64,000 bases of DNA, taken from NCBI RefSeq assembly GCF_003812745.1, contig NZ_CP033831.1, forward strand, positions 3,906,001 through 3,970,000, written 5' to 3'. How positions within the stretch are numbered: position 1 is the first letter of the stretch; every line of letters starts with the position of its first letter. This stretch comes from Serratia sp. FDAARGOS_506 (lineage in GTDB: Bacteria > Pseudomonadota > Gammaproteobacteria > Enterobacterales > Enterobacteriaceae). Below, piece by piece: positions 15,498 through 24,640 of this stretch. A model generated the notes under the pieces. That model saw only the letters and a program-made list of their open reading frames with translations. It ran no database searches and was not told the DNA's origin. A program made the translations under genes and the position numbers.

Positions 15498-17948
15498 CTA
15501 GGAGGAGTGTTCCTCTTCGTTGGCCTGATATCGCGTCGCCTGCTGCTTCATAAACACCACTTCCTGCGGGCTGGACAGGCTCACTTCCTGCGCGCGCAGC
15601 AGCTTGAGGATATTGAACAGCAGTTCACTCTTGGTGGCGCCGACCATGCGCGGACTCGGCACGTAGCCGGTCACGCTCAGGATAATGCCGTCCGGCCCCA
15701 GCTGGCTGAAGCGCACGTAAGGCGCCGGCGTTTCCAGAATGGTTTCGTACTCGTTGTAGGCGCTGAGCAAGATATTGCGCACCTGCTCCGGATCGATTGA
15801 GGTCGGGAACGTCAGCGCGATGGTCACCACCCCTTGCGCATTACCCATAGTGGCGTTGCGCACGTTCTGCGAGATCAGCTGCGAGTTCGGTACGATCATG
15901 GTGGAACGGTCGCTGAGCTGGATTTCGGTGGCGCGCACGTTGATGCGCCGCACGTCGCCTTCCACGCCGCCAATGCCGATCATGTCTCCGACCTTCACCG
16001 GACGCTCGGTCAGCAGGATCAGGCCGGAAATAAAGTTCTTCACGATCTCCTGCAAACCGAAACCGATACCGACCGACAGGGCGCTGACGATCCACGCCAG
16101 GTTGCTCCACTGGATGCCCAGCGCCGCCAGGGTGATCAGAATCACCAACACATAGCCGATATTGCTGAACAATGTCACCAGAGAGGCGCGGATGCCGACG
16201 TCCGAGATGGTTTTTGGCAGCAGTTCCGATCCCAGCCAGCGCCGCACCGCACGCAGAATGTAGATGCCGATCGCCAGGCAGATCACGGCGTTGAGCAGGT
16301 TGCCGGGCACGATATTGAAACGCTGCAGCCCTTCGCCGGTCAGGATGGAGACGATTTTCTCCATCAGCGAGCCCGGCGTGGTGCTGCCGAACGAGCCGTT
16401 GAACAGCGCGACGATCATCAACAGCAACAGTGAACATTTGGCCAGCGCGGTGGTGATGATCGACATCTGCTCCAGATGGCGATCCTTGAAGCTAAGCGTT
16501 TTCTTCAGCATCTTGCCGCTGACGGTCTGCGGCGAAAACAGCGCGGCGCACAAGTCGGTGGCGAACAGCACCATAAAGTAGAACGCCATCAGCACCAGCA
16601 CCACCCAGATCAACTGGTAGGTCAGGAAGCGAGCGAAGGCGATGTAGCCGATGAGCAAGGAAAGCAGGATCACCACCGAGCAGACCAGGGTGACGAGGTG
16701 CACCAGTCCGCCGACCAGCGTGCGTTTTTCCAGGTGCGCGCCCTGCTGTTCCAAACGGCGACGAATGCGCTGGCCGCGCAGCGGCGCTGCCAGCAGCACC
16801 ATGCCGATCAGCCCCGCGACCAGGCCGTTGCCAAAGATGGTGGTGGCCAATGAGGCGCTGACGACGTTGTTGATCAGCTCCACGGTGCCGAACGCCAGCG
16901 CCAGGCCGGCCAGCAGCGGCGAGAAGTAACGCAGCCCGGCGGCCACGTCGTTATCCATGGAAGCCAAACGCCACGACGGGCGATTCAACGACAGCGCCGC
17001 ACGCCCCAGCCCGGCGATCAGCGCGCAGAAAATCCCCAGACGGTTGAAACCTTCGGCGAAATCCTCCAGCGTCACCGGCAGCGGCTGCACGCGCACAAAG
17101 ACGTAATACAGCAGGTTCAGCGCGATTGAGGTGGTGACCACCGTCACCGCCACGGTGACGATCGCCATGAAGCTGCGGCGCAGGCGCCCGTCCGGCAGGA
17201 AACGGATGCTGACCCAGGCGAGGAAACGCTCGGAGAAATAGCGCCCCCAGGACCAGACAATCACCGCCAGCGCCAGCAACGCCAGCGTGCCGTACCGCCA
17301 CTCCTCCTGCCAACTGGCGTCCCAGGCCGCTTTCATCTCGGCGTTGAACTGATCCAGCCGCTGCACGTCATCCGCGGACGGCTGCACCACCGGCGCCCAG
17401 AATTTGACGCCCAAAATGCTGCCGGTATTCAACGCCAGCTGGGTTTTAAACGCTACCCGGCGCAGATCGCCGATCTGTTGCCCCAGATCGAAGGCGCTGG
17501 TCTTGATGGCCTGCGCGCGTTTTACCGCATCATCCAGCTGTTTTTTGCTATTGTTCAGCGCGTTGCGCTGCTGGGCCACTGCGGGAGTTTCCGGCAGCGC
17601 GCCGGCAGCCGGGGCCGGCCCCAGGACGTCCAACTGCGCCTGCAGTTTCTCCTGCAGCGGCTGCAGATCGGTAGACAGTTTATCCATGCCGGCAACCAGA
17701 TCGTCGGTCGCCAACCGCAGTTTGCTGAGCTGGGTGTCGGTGGTCGCTTTGGAAACCAGCTGCTTCATGCTGTCCAACTGCTTTTGCGCGGCTTTCAGCT
17801 GCGTAGCGGGATCGGGCGCGCTTTCGGCGGCGGGATCATCCTCGGTGGCGGCGACGGCGCCGAGCGGCGTCAGCTGCAAACCAAACAGCAATAACAACAA
17901 CAGCAGGAACGGGCGAGGCTTTAACATAAATTCAGTGCTCAGCATCAT
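15498..17948 (-). CDS. MscS-family mechanosensitive channel with DUF3772 domain
   Basis: An approximately 810-residue inner-membrane channel. Signal-like hydrophobic N-terminus (LLLLLLFGLQLTPLGAVAA), a periplasmic coiled-coil-prone DUF3772 domain (about 45-200), around ten membrane segments (about 215-600) and the C-terminal MscS core (about 600-780; SVGIGFGLQEIVKNFISGL is the pore helix region, followed by the beta domain with IGGVEGDVRRINVRATEIQL). Such large MscS paralogues release solutes on hypo-osmotic stress. Start uncertain: 17948 is the outermost ATG and 17927 (MLKPRPF) is also plausible; neither has a good ribosome site. Confidence 0.9.
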   Translation of the reverse strand: MMLSTEFMLKPRPFLLLLLLLFGLQLTPLGAVAATEDDPAAESAPDPATQLKAAQKQLDSMKQLVSKATTDTQLSKLRLATDDLVAGMDKLSTDLQPLQEKLQAQLDVLGPAPAAGALPETPAVAQQRNALNNSKKQLDDAVKRAQAIKTSAFDLGQQIGDLRRVAFKTQLALNTGSILGVKFWAPVVQPSADDVQRLDQFNAEMKAAWDASWQEEWRYGTLALLALAVIVWSWGRYFSERFLAWVSIRFLPDGRLRRSFMAIVTVAVTVVTTSIALNLLYYVFVRVQPLPVTLEDFAEGFNRLGIFCALIAGLGRAALSLNRPSWRLASMDNDVAAGLRYFSPLLAGLALAFGTVELINNVVSASLATTIFGNGLVAGLIGMVLLAAPLRGQRIRRRLEQQGAHLEKRTLVGGLVHLVTLVCSVVILLSLLIGYIAFARFLTYQLIWVVLVLMAFYFMVLFATDLCAALFSPQTVSGKMLKKTLSFKDRHLEQMSIITTALAKCSLLLLMIVALFNGSFGSTTPGSLMEKIVSILTGEGLQRFNIVPGNLLNAVICLAIGIYILRAVRRWLGSELLPKTISDVGIRASLVTLFSNIGYVLVILITLAALGIQWSNLAWIVSALSVGIGFGLQEIVKNFISGLILLTERPVKVGDMIGIGGVEGDVRRINVRATEIQLSDRSTMIVPNSQLISQNVRNATMGNAQGVVTIALTFPTSIDPEQVRNILLSAYNEYETILETPAPYVRFSQLGPDGIILSVTGYVPSPRMVGATKSELLFNILKLLRAQEVSLSSPQEVVFMKQQATRYQANEEEHSS

Positions 17949-18110: not shown

Positions 18111-18139
18111 TGGCGGCGCGATAAAAAGCGCTCTATACT
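18111..18139 (+). promoter_or_regulatory. Candidate promoter of leader-ABC-F unit
   Basis: TATACT at 18134-18139 is a good -10; the -35 at the standard 17-bp distance (18111-18116, TGGCGG) is poor, suggesting help from an activator. A small palindrome GTGTG-C-CACAC sits at 18055-18065. Transcription would start near 18146. Confidence 0.4.
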
Positions 18140-18180
18140 CCTGCCACCGATTAACCTGCAACCAATAAAGGAGGATTACT

Positions 18181-18264
18181 ATGCTGACGTGTGAACTGTT
18201 TTTTCACTCACACTTCTTTGGTAATCGCCGCCGCTCAAGCATTACCGGTATCGTGCTGCGATAA
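18181..18264 (+). CDS. 27-residue leader peptide upstream of ABC-F gene
   Basis: A short ORF of 27 codons plus TAA with an ideal ribosome site (AAAGGAGG, seven bases before ATG), far better than that of the ABC-F gene it precedes by 112 bp. The peptide contains FFHSHFF (residues 7-13) and RRR (16-18, three CGC codons), the sort of aromatic and basic content seen in ribosome-stalling peptides. Its last third (18232-18240) is one arm of an RNA stem with sequence just after its stop. I infer a regulatory leader (translational attenuator). I do not recognise it as any named enterobacterial leader. It is too short for standard annotation. Confidence 0.72.
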   Translation: MLTCELFFHSHFFGNRRRSSITGIVLR

Positions 18265-18376
18265 CCCAGCTTGAGCGAAGCTTACTAAAATCCGAGATCT
18301 TCCCTCCGGCTTACCGGGTTGTCGTCAGCGATGTTTGACGATAGGCATTGTTATGCCTGTAACTCTTGAGTAAGCA
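18232..18376 (+). promoter_or_regulatory. Alternating RNA stems controlling ABC-F translation
   Basis: Stem A: CGCTCAAGC (18232-18240, inside the leader ORF) with GCTTGAGCG (18269-18277), perfect. Sequestering pair: GCTTACT (18280-18286) with AGTAAGC (18369-18375), which ends two bases before the ABC-F start and covers its weak GAG ribosome site. Competing hairpin if stem A is blocked: AGCTT (18268-18272) with AAGCT (18278-18282). Extra hairpins at 18305-18318, 18322-18341 and 18343-18358. No T-run follows, so control would be translational. The pairings are read from sequence; their use is inference. Confidence 0.55.
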
Positions 18377-20107
18377 ATGAGCACACTACTGTCTGCACAA
18401 TCTGTCGGTTACGACAACGCGTTCGGCACCCTGCTGAGCGAGATTTCCTTCAGCCTGAAAAAAGGCGATCGCATCGGTTTGATCGGCGACAACGGCTGCG
18501 GCAAAAGTACCCTGCTGCAACTGCTCAGCGGCGATCTGCCCACGCACGCCGGAACGGTGACATTGTCACACCAATGCCTGATGGCGCGCATCGAACAACA
18601 CCTGCCGCCCGAGCTGCACGCAAACACCCTGCTGGATGCGGTGCTGGCACGGCTGCCGACTGGACAACATCTCAGCGAACGCTGGCGCTGTGAAGCGCTG
18701 CTTGCCGAGCTGGGGTTTGAACCGGCGAGCTGGGCGTTGACCGCCGGCGCTCTCAGCGGCGGCCAGCACACCCGTCTGCTGCTGGCGCGCGCGCTGATCC
18801 GTCAGCCCGATCTGCTGCTGCTTGACGAGCCCAGCAACCACCTGGATCTGCCCACGCTGCTGTGGCTGGAGCAATTCCTGCGCAGCTGGAGCGGCAGCTT
18901 CGTGCTGGTGTCGCACGATCGCTATCTGCTCGATCAGGTGACCAACTGCACCTGGATCCTGCGCGACAAAACGCTGCAGTTCTTCCGCTTGCCCTGTTCC
19001 GCCGCACGCCACGCGCTGGCGGAACAGGACGCCGCAGACGAGCACCGTCGTCAGGCCGAGCAAAAAGAGATAGACCGGGTGGAGAAAAGCGCCAAACGCC
19101 TGGCGACCTGGGGCAAGGTCTATGACAACGAAGATCTGGCGCGCAAAGCCAAGCAAATGGAAAAGCGCGTCGATCGGTTGAAGGAGGAACAGACCACTCT
19201 GACTGCCGGCAGCCCGTGGCGGCTGCGATTACAGGGAGAGGCGCTGGACGCCGATCGCCTGCTGGCGCTACCGCAATGGGCCGTGCGCCCGGCGCCGGAT
19301 GCGCCGGTGCTGTTCAGCCTGGAACATCTGCGCGTGAAGAGCGGCGATCGCATCGCCATCGTCGGGCGCAACGGCTGCGGTAAATCGTCGCTGCTGCGCT
19401 TGCTGTGGCAAGCGTATCAGCAGCCCACGGAACGCGCGGCAATCTTCCATCCGCGCGTGCGCATCGGCTATTACGATCAAAGCCTGCAACAGCTGCGCGA
19501 TGAAGACACGTTGAACGAAGCGCTGGCGCAGTTTGCGCCGCTGACCGAGGAACAGCGAAAAATGGCGCTGATCGGCGCCGGTTTCCCTTACCTGCGCCAC
19601 CATCAGCAGATCCGTTCGCTGAGCGGCGGCGAGCGTTCGAGGTTGCTGTTCGTCGGCCTGACGCTGGCCAACCATTCGCTGCTGCTGTTGGACGAGCCCA
19701 CCAACCACCTGGACATGGCGGGCAAAGAAGAGCTGGCGGAAACGCTGCGCCAGTTCGCCGGCGCCGTCATGTTGGTCACCCACGATCGGATGCTGCTCGA
19801 ACAGAGCTGCAACCGCTTTTGGCTGATCGACCAGCAAAAACTGGAGGAGTGGCACGATCTGGCGCCGGTGTATCAGCGCCTGGGGGGCGAAGCGCCGGCG
19901 CTACCGACGGCGGACAAGGCCGACGCAGACGGCCCGACGCCGGACGAACGACGGGAAGGCGAAGAAGCGCTGTTGACCGCCCTGTTGGCCCTCGAAAGCA
20001 AACTGGAGGACGATCTGGCGCGCAAGCCGAAGCACCAGAAGCCGGCGCTTCAGGCGCGCTGGCGCCGCGAGATTGCCGACATCACCGCCCGGTTGAATCT
20101 GGGCTAA
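18377..20107 (+). CDS. ABC-F family translation factor / possible ribosome-protection ATPase
   Basis: A 576-residue protein with two ABC domains and no membrane segments. Walker A motifs GDNGCGKST (about 37-45) and GRNGCGKSS (about 330-338), signatures LSGGQ (about 130) and LSGGERSRLL (about 415), and Walker B LLLLDEPSNHLD and LLLLDEPTNHLD. The linker between domains (about 215-285) is helical and highly charged (RLATWGKVYDNEDLARKAK), the part that in ABC-F proteins reaches the P-site tRNA. C-terminal extension from about 490. It is clearly different from Uup, EttA, YbiT and YheS as I know them, so it is an additional ABC-F. The leader peptide and stems upstream suggest induction by ribosome stalling. 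Terminator at 20115. Confidence 0.9.
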   Translation: MSTLLSAQSVGYDNAFGTLLSEISFSLKKGDRIGLIGDNGCGKSTLLQLLSGDLPTHAGTVTLSHQCLMARIEQHLPPELHANTLLDAVLARLPTGQHLSERWRCEALLAELGFEPASWALTAGALSGGQHTRLLLARALIRQPDLLLLDEPSNHLDLPTLLWLEQFLRSWSGSFVLVSHDRYLLDQVTNCTWILRDKTLQFFRLPCSAARHALAEQDAADEHRRQAEQKEIDRVEKSAKRLATWGKVYDNEDLARKAKQMEKRVDRLKEEQTTLTAGSPWRLRLQGEALDADRLLALPQWAVRPAPDAPVLFSLEHLRVKSGDRIAIVGRNGCGKSSLLRLLWQAYQQPTERAAIFHPRVRIGYYDQSLQQLRDEDTLNEALAQFAPLTEEQRKMALIGAGFPYLRHHQQIRSLSGGERSRLLFVGLTLANHSLLLLDEPTNHLDMAGKEELAETLRQFAGAVMLVTHDRMLLEQSCNRFWLIDQQKLEEWHDLAPVYQRLGGEAPALPTADKADADGPTPDERREGEEALLTALLALESKLEDDLARKPKHQKPALQARWRREIADITARLNLG

Positions 20108-23368: not shown

Positions 23369-24391
23369 TTAAATACCCAATACCTGCTGGGCAATTTTGA
23401 AATAAATAATCAGGCCGGTGCCGTCGATAAAGGTGGCGATAAACGGCGCAGACACCACCGCCGGATCGATGCCGAGCCGTTTCAACAGCATCGGAATGAT
23501 CGACGAGACAATCGCGCTCCACACGGTGATCGCTACCAGCGACAGGCTGACCACCAACGTCACCTCCATGCCGACGCCCATGATCCAGGCGCGTACCCAG
23601 GCCGCCAGGCCGATGGTGACGGCGATCAGCAGCGAGGTCGTCACTTCTTTGCGGATCACCGCGCCCAGATTGCGCAGGCTGACCTCACCCAGCGCCATGG
23701 CGCGCACCAGCGTCGAGGTGATCTGGGTGCCACTGTTGCCGCCGGTGCCGATCAGCAGCGGGATGAAGAACGCCAACGCAATCGCCGCTTCGAGCTGATC
23801 TTCAAACGCCTTCAGCACGTTGCCGGTGTAAGCTTCGGCGACGAACAGCATCAGCAGCCACACCGAACGTTTACGCCACAGCGCCCACGGGCTGGTCTCC
23901 AGATAAGGCTTGTCCAGCGGCAGGCTCGCGCCCTGGCGCTGCGCGTCTTCGGTGTTTTCATCCTCGACCAGGCGGGCGATCTCTCGCTCCCCCAACACGC
24001 CGACCAGCGTGTTGTTCGCCACGACCGGCACCACGTCCAGGCCGCCCTTGCCGAGCAGGTGCGCTACATCGTTGCGATCGTCGTCGGGCGAAACCTGAAA
24101 ATAGCTGTGATCCATCATCACGCCGACCGCTTTATCCTGCTCATCGCACTGCAGCAGTTTTTTTACCGACAGCGTGCCGCGCAGATGATAATCGTCCGCG
24201 GTAATAAATACCCGGGTGGGAATTTCGTCCGTTTTAAGCTGTGAAAGTAAATATTCCCGGGCATGATTGACCGTCATCGTTGCGGGAACAGTAATAAAAT
24301 CGGCGTTCATATAACCGGCGACCGATGTTTCGTCGAGAGTTTCGGTCGCGCTCAGCGCCGGAGAAGAATAGTGTTGATGTGACTTAATCAT
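23369..24391 (-). CDS. mgtE: MgtE-family magnesium transporter, short form
   Basis: A 340-residue magnesium channel. It has a CBS-domain pair (about residues 25-150; VPVVANNTLVGVLGEREIARL is the second) and five membrane segments (about 170-340) with the conserved core WLLMLFVAEAYTG, IGTGGNSGTQ and GLIIYFKIA. Typical MgtE is about 450 residues and begins with a 130-residue superhelical N domain that helps close the pore when Mg2+ is high; that domain is absent here. Start at 24391 chosen because AGGGA lies eight bases upstream. The transcript carries an M-box riboswitch, so expression should rise at low Mg2+. Confidence 0.93.
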   Translation of the reverse strand: MIKSHQHYSSPALSATETLDETSVAGYMNADFITVPATMTVNHAREYLLSQLKTDEIPTRVFITADDYHLRGTLSVKKLLQCDEQDKAVGVMMDHSYFQVSPDDDRNDVAHLLGKGGLDVVPVVANNTLVGVLGEREIARLVEDENTEDAQRQGASLPLDKPYLETSPWALWRKRSVWLLMLFVAEAYTGNVLKAFEDQLEAAIALAFFIPLLIGTGGNSGTQITSTLVRAMALGEVSLRNLGAVIRKEVTTSLLIAVTIGLAAWVRAWIMGVGMEVTLVVSLSLVAITVWSAIVSSIIPMLLKRLGIDPAVVSAPFIATFIDGTGLIIYFKIAQQVLGI

Positions 24392-24470
24392 TTTGTCAGT
24401 CCCTATTTCTGTTTTGAACTTCAACAGCGAATCGCATAGGGGCGTAACCACAGAGGGAGTGCAGACTGCC

Positions 24471-24640
24471 TATCTCCGCGTCCAGGTTTTAGCACTATAC
24501 AACGTATCCGAGCTGTTACTCGGAAGTTACTTTGGGCTGAACCTTAATCCGATAAAGCCTGTCTTAACCTTGGGCATCTCTCGATGTCGTCAGATCAGTA
24601 ACCTGTGTTTGTATAGGAGCCTCGCCAAACGAGATACTGC
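24471..24640 (-). ncRNA. M-box (ykoK leader) magnesium riboswitch
   Basis: On the minus strand the conserved M-box landmarks appear in order: closing stem TATCTC (24631-24636 as complement) with GAGATA (24471-24476 as complement), GGCGAGGCTCC then TATAC, a central ATGCCCAAGG region, and the 3' signature GTATAGTGCTAAAAC. This matches the ykoK/M-box consensus used by Mg2+ riboswitches. It ends about 80 nt before the mgtE start, leaving room for an expression platform. Bound Mg2+ is expected to turn the operon off. A TATACT -10-like sequence lies upstream near 24651-24656 on the same strand. Confidence 0.88.

What the first reader, a model, noticed from the sequence alone, without database searches (positions are those of the whole stretch)
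18134..20107. ABC-F translation factor under a leader peptide: probable ribosome-stalling induction system
Seen: a 27-codon ORF with a near-perfect ribosome site (AAAGGAGG) ends 112 bp before an ABC-F gene whose own site is only GAG. The ORF's last codons (18232-18240) pair perfectly with 18269-18277, and GCTTACT (18280-18286) pairs perfectly with AGTAAGC (18369-18375) at the ABC-F start. A third hairpin (18268-18272 with 18278-18282) would break the second pairing if the first is prevented. Known: resistance ABC-F genes (Vga, Msr, Lsa) and erm genes in Gram-positives are induced when an antibiotic stalls the ribosome on such a leader. Inference: a stalled ribosome covering 18232-18240 frees the ABC-F start. 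The ABC-F differs from Uup, EttA, YbiT and YheS. The peptide (FFHSHFF then RRR) does not match a leader I know.
Basis: partly seen in the sequence, partly recalled or inferred. Interest (0 to 1): 0.85.

Follow-up and report, generated by a model that had tools for sequence, protein, structure and literature searches.

The report
Leader-peptide RNA switch controlling ABC-F gene
A short leader in front of a ribosome-associated ATPase gene, kept in many Gram-negative bacteria, looks like a switch that turns the gene on when a ribosome gets stuck partway through the leader, as known antibiotic-resistance switches do; the trigger is unknown.

Summary
The leader ORF (18181-18264) and ABC-F gene (18377-20107) are real. 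A leader of 26-28 codons precedes 95 of 96 ABC-F loci examined (window included, 4 repeats). Most were found through the region's own DNA, but all 27 found by protein alone (4 of them repeats) have it too. The first pairing (18234-18240 with 18269-18275) is conserved with compensatory changes; the second (18280-18286 with 18369-18375) is not (47% of cells). Instead segment 18234-18239 alternatively pairs with the ABC-F ribosome site (18365-18370), and the leader's end with 18317-18324. Constrained folding of 67 sequences predicts that a ribosome halted around codons 14-24 opens the ABC-F start (median gain 1.7-3.0 kcal/mol) and one at the stop codon does not; shuffled controls show no such effect. 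In the window itself the gain is at most 1.8. In-frame peptide constraint lies at codons 11-16, overlapping the start of that zone. The ABC-F is very likely PAF1, a predicted, untested resistance subfamily. A sister ABC-F clade (Rhizobium and others) carries an unrelated leader (mostly RGP...LQG) with the same predicted logic. Stalling, inducer and resistance are not shown.

The parts
18134..18139 (+). TATACT, -10-like promoter element (tentative)
   Evidence: TATACT or TATAAT at this place in the same-genus loci that were in the right orientation; the promoter scan found no full match here, only one at 17921-17948
18167..18174 (+). leader ribosome-binding site AAAGGAGG
   Evidence: longest match to TAAGGAGGT is 6-9 nt in 93 of 93 kept leaders against 3-4 nt for the ABC-F site (the ORF finder already asked for 5 nt)
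18181..18264 (+). leader ORF, 27 codons
   Evidence: 26-28 codons in 95 of 96 loci
18189..18213 (+). hairpin inside the first half of the leader ORF (GTGTGA 18189-18194 with TCACAC 18208-18213)
   Evidence: MFE; 233 of 255 cells paired in alignment A1 for the corresponding six columns
18211..18228 (+). codons 11-16, begin with the motif [HR]-x-[FYL]-[GS]
   Evidence: 52 syn, 82 nonsyn, 33.0 syn expected, p=2e-4 in frame (segment chosen after looking); the two wrong frames give 45 against 44.1 and 20 against 28.3
18234..18240 (+). segment A (CTCAAGC, Ser19-Ser20 codons): pairs with B or with E
18259..18266 (+). segment S (CGATAACC: last codon, stop, two bases): pairs with D'
   Evidence: 520 of 536 cells paired in 67 sequences; fewer double changes than the other two helices
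18269..18275 (+). segment B (GCTTGAG): partner of A
   Evidence: 449 of 469 cells; only 5 of 7 pairs in the five Aeromonas-type sequences
18299..18306 (+). segment C (CTTCCCTC), pairs with GAGCGAAG 18273-18280
   Evidence: 289 of 308 cells; weak: slid controls score as high or higher on covariation
18317..18324 (+). segment D' (GGTTGTCG): partner of S
18344..18357 (+). hairpin GGCAT-TGTT-ATGCC
   Evidence: four of five pairs with double changes, 88.4% of cells paired
18365..18370 (+). segment E (CTTGAG), contains the ABC-F ribosome site GAG 18368-18370
   Evidence: A:E 392 of 402 cells
18377..20107 (+). ABC-F ATPase, 576 aa, very likely subfamily PAF1
   Evidence: PMC6723617 passages
   Evidence: 120 of 258 cells paired

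Best explanation
A ribosome-operated translational switch. The leader ORF has a strong ribosome site, the ABC-F a weak one. In free RNA the ABC-F site is mostly paired: with segment A of the leader (18234-18239 with 18365-18370, backed by the leader's last codons pairing with D', 18317-18324) or, when A is taken by its local partner B, with other strands. A ribosome that halts with its P site at about codons 14-24 covers A, so A:E cannot form and the ABC-F start opens; S:D' then keeps the second masking strand off E, a small contribution. A ribosome at the stop codon covers S and B and leaves A free for E, so ordinary translation keeps the gene low. Peptide constraint at codons 11-16, overlapping the start of that zone, fits a nascent peptide that helps the ribosome halt there. 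Shown here: conservation, covariation, the folding prediction, the in-frame peptide constraint. Inferred: that leader ribosomes halt there, that a ribosome-targeting drug is the cause, and that the ABC-F then protects or rescues ribosomes.
For: Leader in 95 of 96 loci, window included, 4 repeats. Of these 68 were found through DNA that included the leader; the 17 orthologs found by protein in whole genomes and the 10 plasmid-collection loci fetched of 40 records all have it. Neighbour genes differ between the annotated loci. Tree-based null, paired cells: A:B 449/469, A:E 392/402, S:D' 520/536, each 0 of 400 simulations; same-branch double changes A:B 4 (0 of 400 simulations reach this), A:E 2 (2 of 400). 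Aeromonas-type A is CTCTTGC and E changes with it; Burkholderia the same, RNA model 68.9 bits. Stall scan: median opening cost 7.16 kcal/mol free, 4.0-5.2 with the P site at codons 14-24 (lower in 53-65 of 67), 7.5 at the last codon. Codon-18 effect over 1 kcal in 51 of 67 real and 39 of 335 shuffled; Vibrio-type 10/11, Aeromonas-type 5/5, enterics 36/51. Peptide constraint in frame only. Sister ABC-F clade with an unrelated leader: 16 of 23 real, 16 of 115 shuffled.
Against: No experiment. Over all codons of 50 enteric leaders there is no excess of synonymous change (92 against 95.3 expected; a wrong frame gives 110 against 97.9), so much of the conservation is RNA-level; the codon 11-16 window was chosen after looking. 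At codon 18, 16 of 67 sequences do not gain 1 kcal and 5 of them lose more than 1. In the window free RNA prefers A:B (0.91) over A:E (0.05), the free cost is only 4.2, and the gain is 1.8 at best (codon 17), 0.6 at codon 15 and none at codon 14. In free RNA A:B exceeds 0.5 in 26 and A:E in 33 of 67. For S:D' double changes are not beyond the null (1 event, 63 of 400 reach it; 198 of 500 shuffles), and removing S on top of A costs only 0.4 kcal. For A:B the number of pairs with double changes is not above shuffles (445 of 500). L037's leader ends in another frame. Equilibrium folding ignores co-transcriptional order, Rho and mRNA decay.
Confidence: 0.72

Rival explanations
1. Termination-arrest switch: the conserved Leu-Arg-stop end of the peptide makes the ribosome halt at the stop codon (as in SpeFL, recalled, and MsrDL), and that halt turns the ABC-F on.
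For: Leu-Arg ends 89 of 93 leaders and UAA is the stop in 88 of 93. MsrDL stalls at its UAA with erythromycin and ToiL probably does (passages).
Against: A ribosome at the last codon leaves the ABC-F site as closed as in free RNA (7.5 against 7.2 kcal/mol; lower by over 1 in 10 of 67, higher in 27). Codons 17-26 show fewer synonymous changes than expected (38 against 49.2). L100 ends Leu-Gln and S:D' still pairs in 7 of 8 places. S:D' pairing can explain the conserved end.
Confidence: 0.12
2. Broad stress sensor like E. coli toiL: slowing of a ribosome in the leader unmasks the ABC-F site whatever the peptide sequence.
For: The leader ORF itself masks the site, as in toiL (PMC12121999 passages); peptide weakly constrained overall.
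Against: Codons 1-13 and the last codon are not predicted to open the site (median change within about 0.4 kcal in 27-codon leaders). Peptide constraint at codons 11-16.
Confidence: 0.2
3. Structured 5' leader that works without leader translation (metabolite, protein or temperature-sensing RNA), the ORF being incidental.
For: Very high nucleotide conservation and RNA covariation.
Against: ORF frame, length and ribosome site kept in 95 of 96 loci; in-frame peptide signal at codons 11-16; no Rfam match.
Confidence: 0.06
4. Transcription attenuation (intrinsic or Rho) is the main output rather than translation of the ABC-F.
For: MsrD and VmlR use it; Rho acts within topAI under toiL. One terminator-like match lies between leader and gene (18319-18344).
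Against: That match has 3 G-C pairs and an interrupted tail (GCATTGTTAT); two matches were found where shuffles give 0.9. The conserved A:E pairing hides a ribosome site.
Confidence: 0.12

Closest known systems
vmlR uORF and leader, Bacillus subtilis (PMC9226507; passages)
   Same: leader ORF, alternative RNA structures, ABC-F product, ribosome site of the ABC-F masked
   Different: three-codon uORF, intrinsic terminator, RNA polymerase pausing
msrD / MsrDL, streptococci (PMC10314930; passages)
   Same: ABC-F gene under a leader peptide
   Different: six-residue leader, stall at the stop codon, terminator read-through
toiL-topAI, E. coli (PMC12121999; passages)
   Same: leader ORF pairs with the downstream ribosome site; Gram-negative; translational output
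   Different: controls a toxin-antitoxin operon; stalling anywhere is proposed to be enough; here only codons 14-24 are predicted to work
erm leaders such as ermC (recalled)
   Same: stall masks one stem arm and re-pairing frees a ribosome site
   Different: methyltransferase target, Gram-positive, different arms
PAF1 subfamily of ABC-F (PMC6723617; passages)
   Same: genera named there include Vibrio, Klebsiella, Serratia and exclude Escherichia, which fits the distribution found here
   Different: the main text holds 0 occurrences of leader, uORF, attenuation or upstream open reading

Membership tests
stall-controlled leader switches of ABC-F/erm genes | short ORF upstream with a ribosome site, conserved in frame and position | tested here: met
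   95 of 96 loci; 27 of 27 of those found by protein. Translation itself not shown
stall-controlled leader switches of ABC-F/erm genes | mutually exclusive RNA pairings supported by compensatory change | tested here: met
   A:B and A:E; S:D' weaker
stall-controlled leader switches of ABC-F/erm genes | ribosome position on the leader changes access to the downstream ribosome site | tested here: met
   by folding only; shuffles
stall-controlled leader switches of ABC-F/erm genes | drug-dependent stalling and induction | not testable with these tools
   needs toeprint and reporter
transcription-attenuation leaders (vmlR, msrD type) | intrinsic terminator between leader and gene | tested here: inconclusive
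   one weak terminator-like match at 18319-18344 without an uninterrupted T run; two matches in the scanned stretch, shuffles mean 0.9, sd 0.9
PAF1 | separate proteobacterial ABC-F subfamily, present in Vibrio, Klebsiella, Serratia, absent from Escherichia | tested here: met
   no DNA match for the leader or the first 604 bases of the gene in the E. coli collection (20,395 records). Rival candidate L111: no Vibrio among 15 plasmid records
PAF1 | placement in the published PAF1 clade | not testable with these tools
   the paper's sequence table was not at hand
NCBIfam NF000355 ribosomal protection-like ABC-F | score at or above the curated cut-off of 380 | tested here: not met
   339 bits for the window protein
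antibiotic-resistance (ARE) ABC-F | lowers drug susceptibility by acting on the ribosome | not testable with these tools
   fold model about equally near VmlR2, PoxtA, YheS and EttA
known Rfam element | match to a family model at gathering score | tested here: not met
   only an M-box elsewhere in the window

The most novel reading that the evidence does not exclude
PAF1 and its sister clade in Rhizobium and relatives are drug-inducible ribosome-protection factors of Gram-negative bacteria, each run by a leader switch in which the leader competes with the ABC-F ribosome site, but with two unrelated arrest peptides ([HR]x[FYL][GS] and RGP) placed where a halted ribosome opens the switch. The gamma leader may sense peptidyl-transferase inhibitors of the chloramphenicol type (linezolid by recall): the residue 14 places from the end is Gly, Ser or Ala in 66 of 67 leaders, residues that chloramphenicol favours in the E site (PMC13410324 passage), and a halt with it there gains over 1 kcal in 44 of 67, though only 0.6 in the window.
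Probability: 0.25. Interest if true: 0.85.

Novelty: new variant of a known kind. Interest (0 to 1): 0.72.

Why it matters
Inducible ABC-F resistance under a leader is known from Gram-positives (MsrD, VmlR). PAF1 was predicted in 2019 as a resistance subfamily in Klebsiella, Enterobacter, Serratia, Citrobacter and Vibrio, with no inducer or regulation in the passages seen. A conserved ribosome-operated switch gives that gene a testable inducer screen, would explain silence in ordinary assays, and supplies two new leader peptides for the study of ribosome arrest.

Tried and rejected
Stop-codon arrest as the ON signal, which was my own first model (note): not supported by the stall scan. Known RNA family: no Rfam match at gathering score. 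Phages: no tblastn match at 1e-80. RNA model R1 in 274 class-level genomes: only the window's own (strict filters, few same-order genomes in the sample), a weak statement of absence since Burkholderia has it. Second copy in the same genome: none. Other unassigned ABC-F in the genome, L111: no leader ORF with a ribosome site found by the filter. ABC-F fold model (mean pLDDT 83): nearest solved folds mix resistance and housekeeping ABC-Fs. B:C pairing: kept as weak. Literature: nine searches listed nothing on a leader upstream of PAF1 or its sister group; listings are capped and the library is open-access only. The first ABC-F tree used wrong-strand ORFs for some loci and was replaced.

Rows dropped: L037 (leader ends in another frame), L042 (ABC-F start not readable; genome 49% complete) and L045 (ABC-F start uncertain) before the folding, tree and codon sets, leaving 93; near-identical sequences then removed, leaving 67. 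The finder accepted only ATG starts, 24-30 codons and an upstream purine-rich site of 5 nt, so these traits in the set of 93 are partly by construction; one search used a looser filter. Four of the 17 protein-found loci repeat places already held (genomes G030, G048, G172, G193). In the sister-clade set 28 loci were examined; 23 had an ORF containing Gly-Pro (Gly-Pro was the filter); L209, L213, L214, L216, L217 had none; L211 and L212 have the same leader peptide.
Full report
What is there. The window holds a 27-codon ORF (18181-18264) behind AAAGGAGG, 112 nt before an ABC-F gene (18377-20107) whose own ribosome site is only GAG. The search of the window's genome returned this gene and four more ABC-F matches: three score as YheS-, YbiT- and Uup-type and one (L111) as none of these; no EttA was among them. 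The window protein scores 339 bits against 380 required for NCBI's ribosomal-protection ABC-F model. Its fold model is about equally near VmlR2, PoxtA, YheS and EttA (TM-scores 0.65-0.68).

Conservation of the leader. Same genus: 26 of 30 genomes have the region, own included; the four without it are 1.5-3.6 Mb genomes. Family: 48 of 198 genomes match the leader DNA, two of them by stretches of about 28-40 nt only. Order, by ABC-F protein: 18 of 197 genomes, and each of the 17 besides the window's own has the leader. Plasmid collection, by protein: 40 records, 10 fetched, 10 with the leader (Klebsiella, Proteus, Morganella, two Vibrio, Photobacterium, Aeromonas, Pantoea, Ewingella, Rahnella). 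In total 95 of 96 loci, window included, carry an ORF of 26-28 codons; four are repeats of the same place, and L037 is the exception. Note the selection: 68 of the 96 were found with DNA that contains the leader; the 27 found by protein are the unbiased part. Of the 93 kept for analysis 88 stop with TAA and 5 with TAG, and 89 end in Leu-Arg; the longest anti-SD match is 6-9 nt for the leader and 3-4 nt for the ABC-F (a match of 5 was asked for in choosing the ORF). Gene neighbours differ between the annotated loci. Burkholderia lata has the same kind of leader and RNA, and its ABC-F groups with the two Aeromonas-type ones in the tree.

RNA pairings. The second stem, GCTTACT with AGTAAGC, forms in only 120 of 258 cells of a 44-sequence alignment. 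RNAalifold on that alignment proposed a long-range fold in which A pairs with E at the ABC-F ribosome site and the leader's end S pairs with D'. In 67 non-redundant sequences A:B forms in 449 of 469 cells, A:E in 392 of 402 and S:D' in 520 of 536; when the same number of changes per column is scattered on the ABC-F tree, 0 of 400 simulations reach any of these. Same-branch double changes that keep the pair: A:B 4 (0 of 400), A:E 2 (2 of 400), S:D' 1 (63 of 400), so S:D' is the weakest on that measure. The simulation is simple and the columns are partly coding. Column shuffles on 44 sequences: paired cells and score 0 of 500 for A:B and A:E, 33 and 16 of 500 for S:D'; the number of pairs with double changes is unremarkable for A:B (445 of 500) and S:D' (198 of 500) and better for A:E (21 of 500). 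Telling cases: A changes to CTCTTGC in Aeromonas-type and Burkholderia sequences with matching E, while A:B in the Aeromonas-type ones has only 5 of 7 pairs; A and B change together in L039, and A, B and E together in L053; in L100 the last codon is Gln instead of Arg and S:D' still has 7 of 8 pairs.

Which ribosome position matters. For each of the 67 sequences the cost of opening the ABC-F ribosome site was computed with a ribosome footprint (14 nt before to 15 nt after the first P-site base) at each leader codon. Free RNA: median 7.16 kcal/mol. P site at codons 14-24 of 27 (counted from the end in leaders of other length): medians 4.0-5.2, lower than free in 53-65 of 67, median gain 1.7-3.0. 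Codons 1-13: median change within about 0.4 kcal. Last sense codon: 7.5. Blocking A alone gives 3.9; blocking S as well 4.3, so S:D' adds little. With upstream sequence shuffled the codon-18 effect vanishes (mean -0.07; below -1 in 39 of 335; real 51 of 67, with 5 of 67 above +1). The effect holds in Vibrio-type (10 of 11), Aeromonas-type (5 of 5) and enteric (36 of 51) sequences. In the window itself the cost is 4.2 free and 2.4-2.9 at codons 17-20 and 2.5-2.8 at 23-24, but 4.5 at 14, 3.6 at 15, 3.9 at 16, 4.1 at 21, 3.5 at 22 and 5.2-5.3 at 25-27; its free RNA prefers A:B (0.91) to A:E (0.05), with the ribosome site still 89% paired. Across the 67, A:E exceeds 0.5 in 33 and A:B in 26.

Peptide. 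Within 50 enteric leaders the whole ORF shows no excess of synonymous change (92 against 95.3 expected; wrong frames 110 against 97.9 and 78 against 90.6); codons 9-16 show 37 against 28.3 (p=0.039) and codons 17-26 show 21 against 33.4. Anchored at the C terminus in all 67, positions -17 to -12 (codons 11-16) show 52 against 33.0 (p=2e-4), the Gly/Ser position -14 alone 14 against 6.2 (p=4e-4), and -11 to -2 show 38 against 49.2. These windows were set after the first result. The two wrong frames over the same stretch give 45 against 44.1 and 20 against 28.3, so the signal is in frame. The peptide thus matters, if anywhere, up to about codon 16, and the rest is conserved as RNA; this stretch overlaps the start of the zone in which a halt opens the switch. 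Position -14 is Gly, Ser or Ala in 66 of 67; chloramphenicol favours Ala, then Ser, Gly, Thr in the E site (PMC13410324 passage). A halt with that residue in the E site gives a median gain of 2.2 kcal/mol, over 1 kcal in 44 of 67, but 0.6 in the window. This is a lead, not a test.

A second leader family. Of 28 such loci 23 carry a different leader of 20-27 codons behind a purine-rich site and containing Gly-Pro, which was the filter; 16 of the 23 have RGP and 20 end in LQG. A ribosome with the Gly of GP in the P site is predicted to open the ABC-F site (median -3.1 kcal/mol, over 1 in 16 of 23; shuffled 16 of 115), and one at the stop codon to close it further (over 1 in 14 of 23; shuffled 14 of 115). 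GACCA, mostly as GACCAG, stands both at the leader stop and near the ABC-F start in many of them. RAPP and RGPP are known arrest motifs (PMC12992588 passages); here RGP is followed by Val or Ile.

Identity with PAF1. Murina et al. [quoted passage not shown] The window's ABC-F fits that distribution; no DNA match for the leader or the first 604 bases of the gene was found in the E. coli collection. The other unassigned ABC-F, L111, has plasmid-collection relatives in Klebsiella, Enterobacter, Cupriavidus, Escherichia, Pseudomonas and Azotobacter and none in Vibrio (15 records). The published clade itself could not be compared.

Verdict. A conserved leader switch, not described in the nine searches made, on a predicted resistance ABC-F of Gram-negative bacteria. 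The mechanism rests on comparative and thermodynamic evidence; stalling, inducer and protection remain to be tested.

Noticed in passing
L115-L118, L194-L215 (sister-clade loci): A second, unrelated leader peptide (mostly RGP...LQG) upstream of the sister ABC-F clade in 23 of 28 loci, with the same predicted stall-opens-site logic.
   Followed up: partly
window 24467-24640, minus strand: M-box magnesium riboswitch (142.9 bits), just upstream of the ORF 23369-24451 on the same strand.
   Followed up: no
window genome 871488-873104 (L111, L113): Another unassigned ABC-F, 539 aa; relatives at 40.6% identity sit on Klebsiella and E. coli plasmid records. No leader ORF with a ribosome site found upstream.
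   Followed up: partly
window 18189-18213; L070, L071: Hairpin within the first half of the leader ORF; in L070 and L071 both sides of one pair change together.
   Followed up: partly
L100: Leader ends Leu-Gln instead of Leu-Arg while the pairing with D' is kept.
   Followed up: partly
L114, Burkholderia lata: The ABC-F groups with Aeromonas-type ones and has the same kind of leader, which may mean transfer between lineages.
   Followed up: partly
L037: The only locus whose leader ends in a different frame; not known whether real or an assembly error.
   Followed up: no
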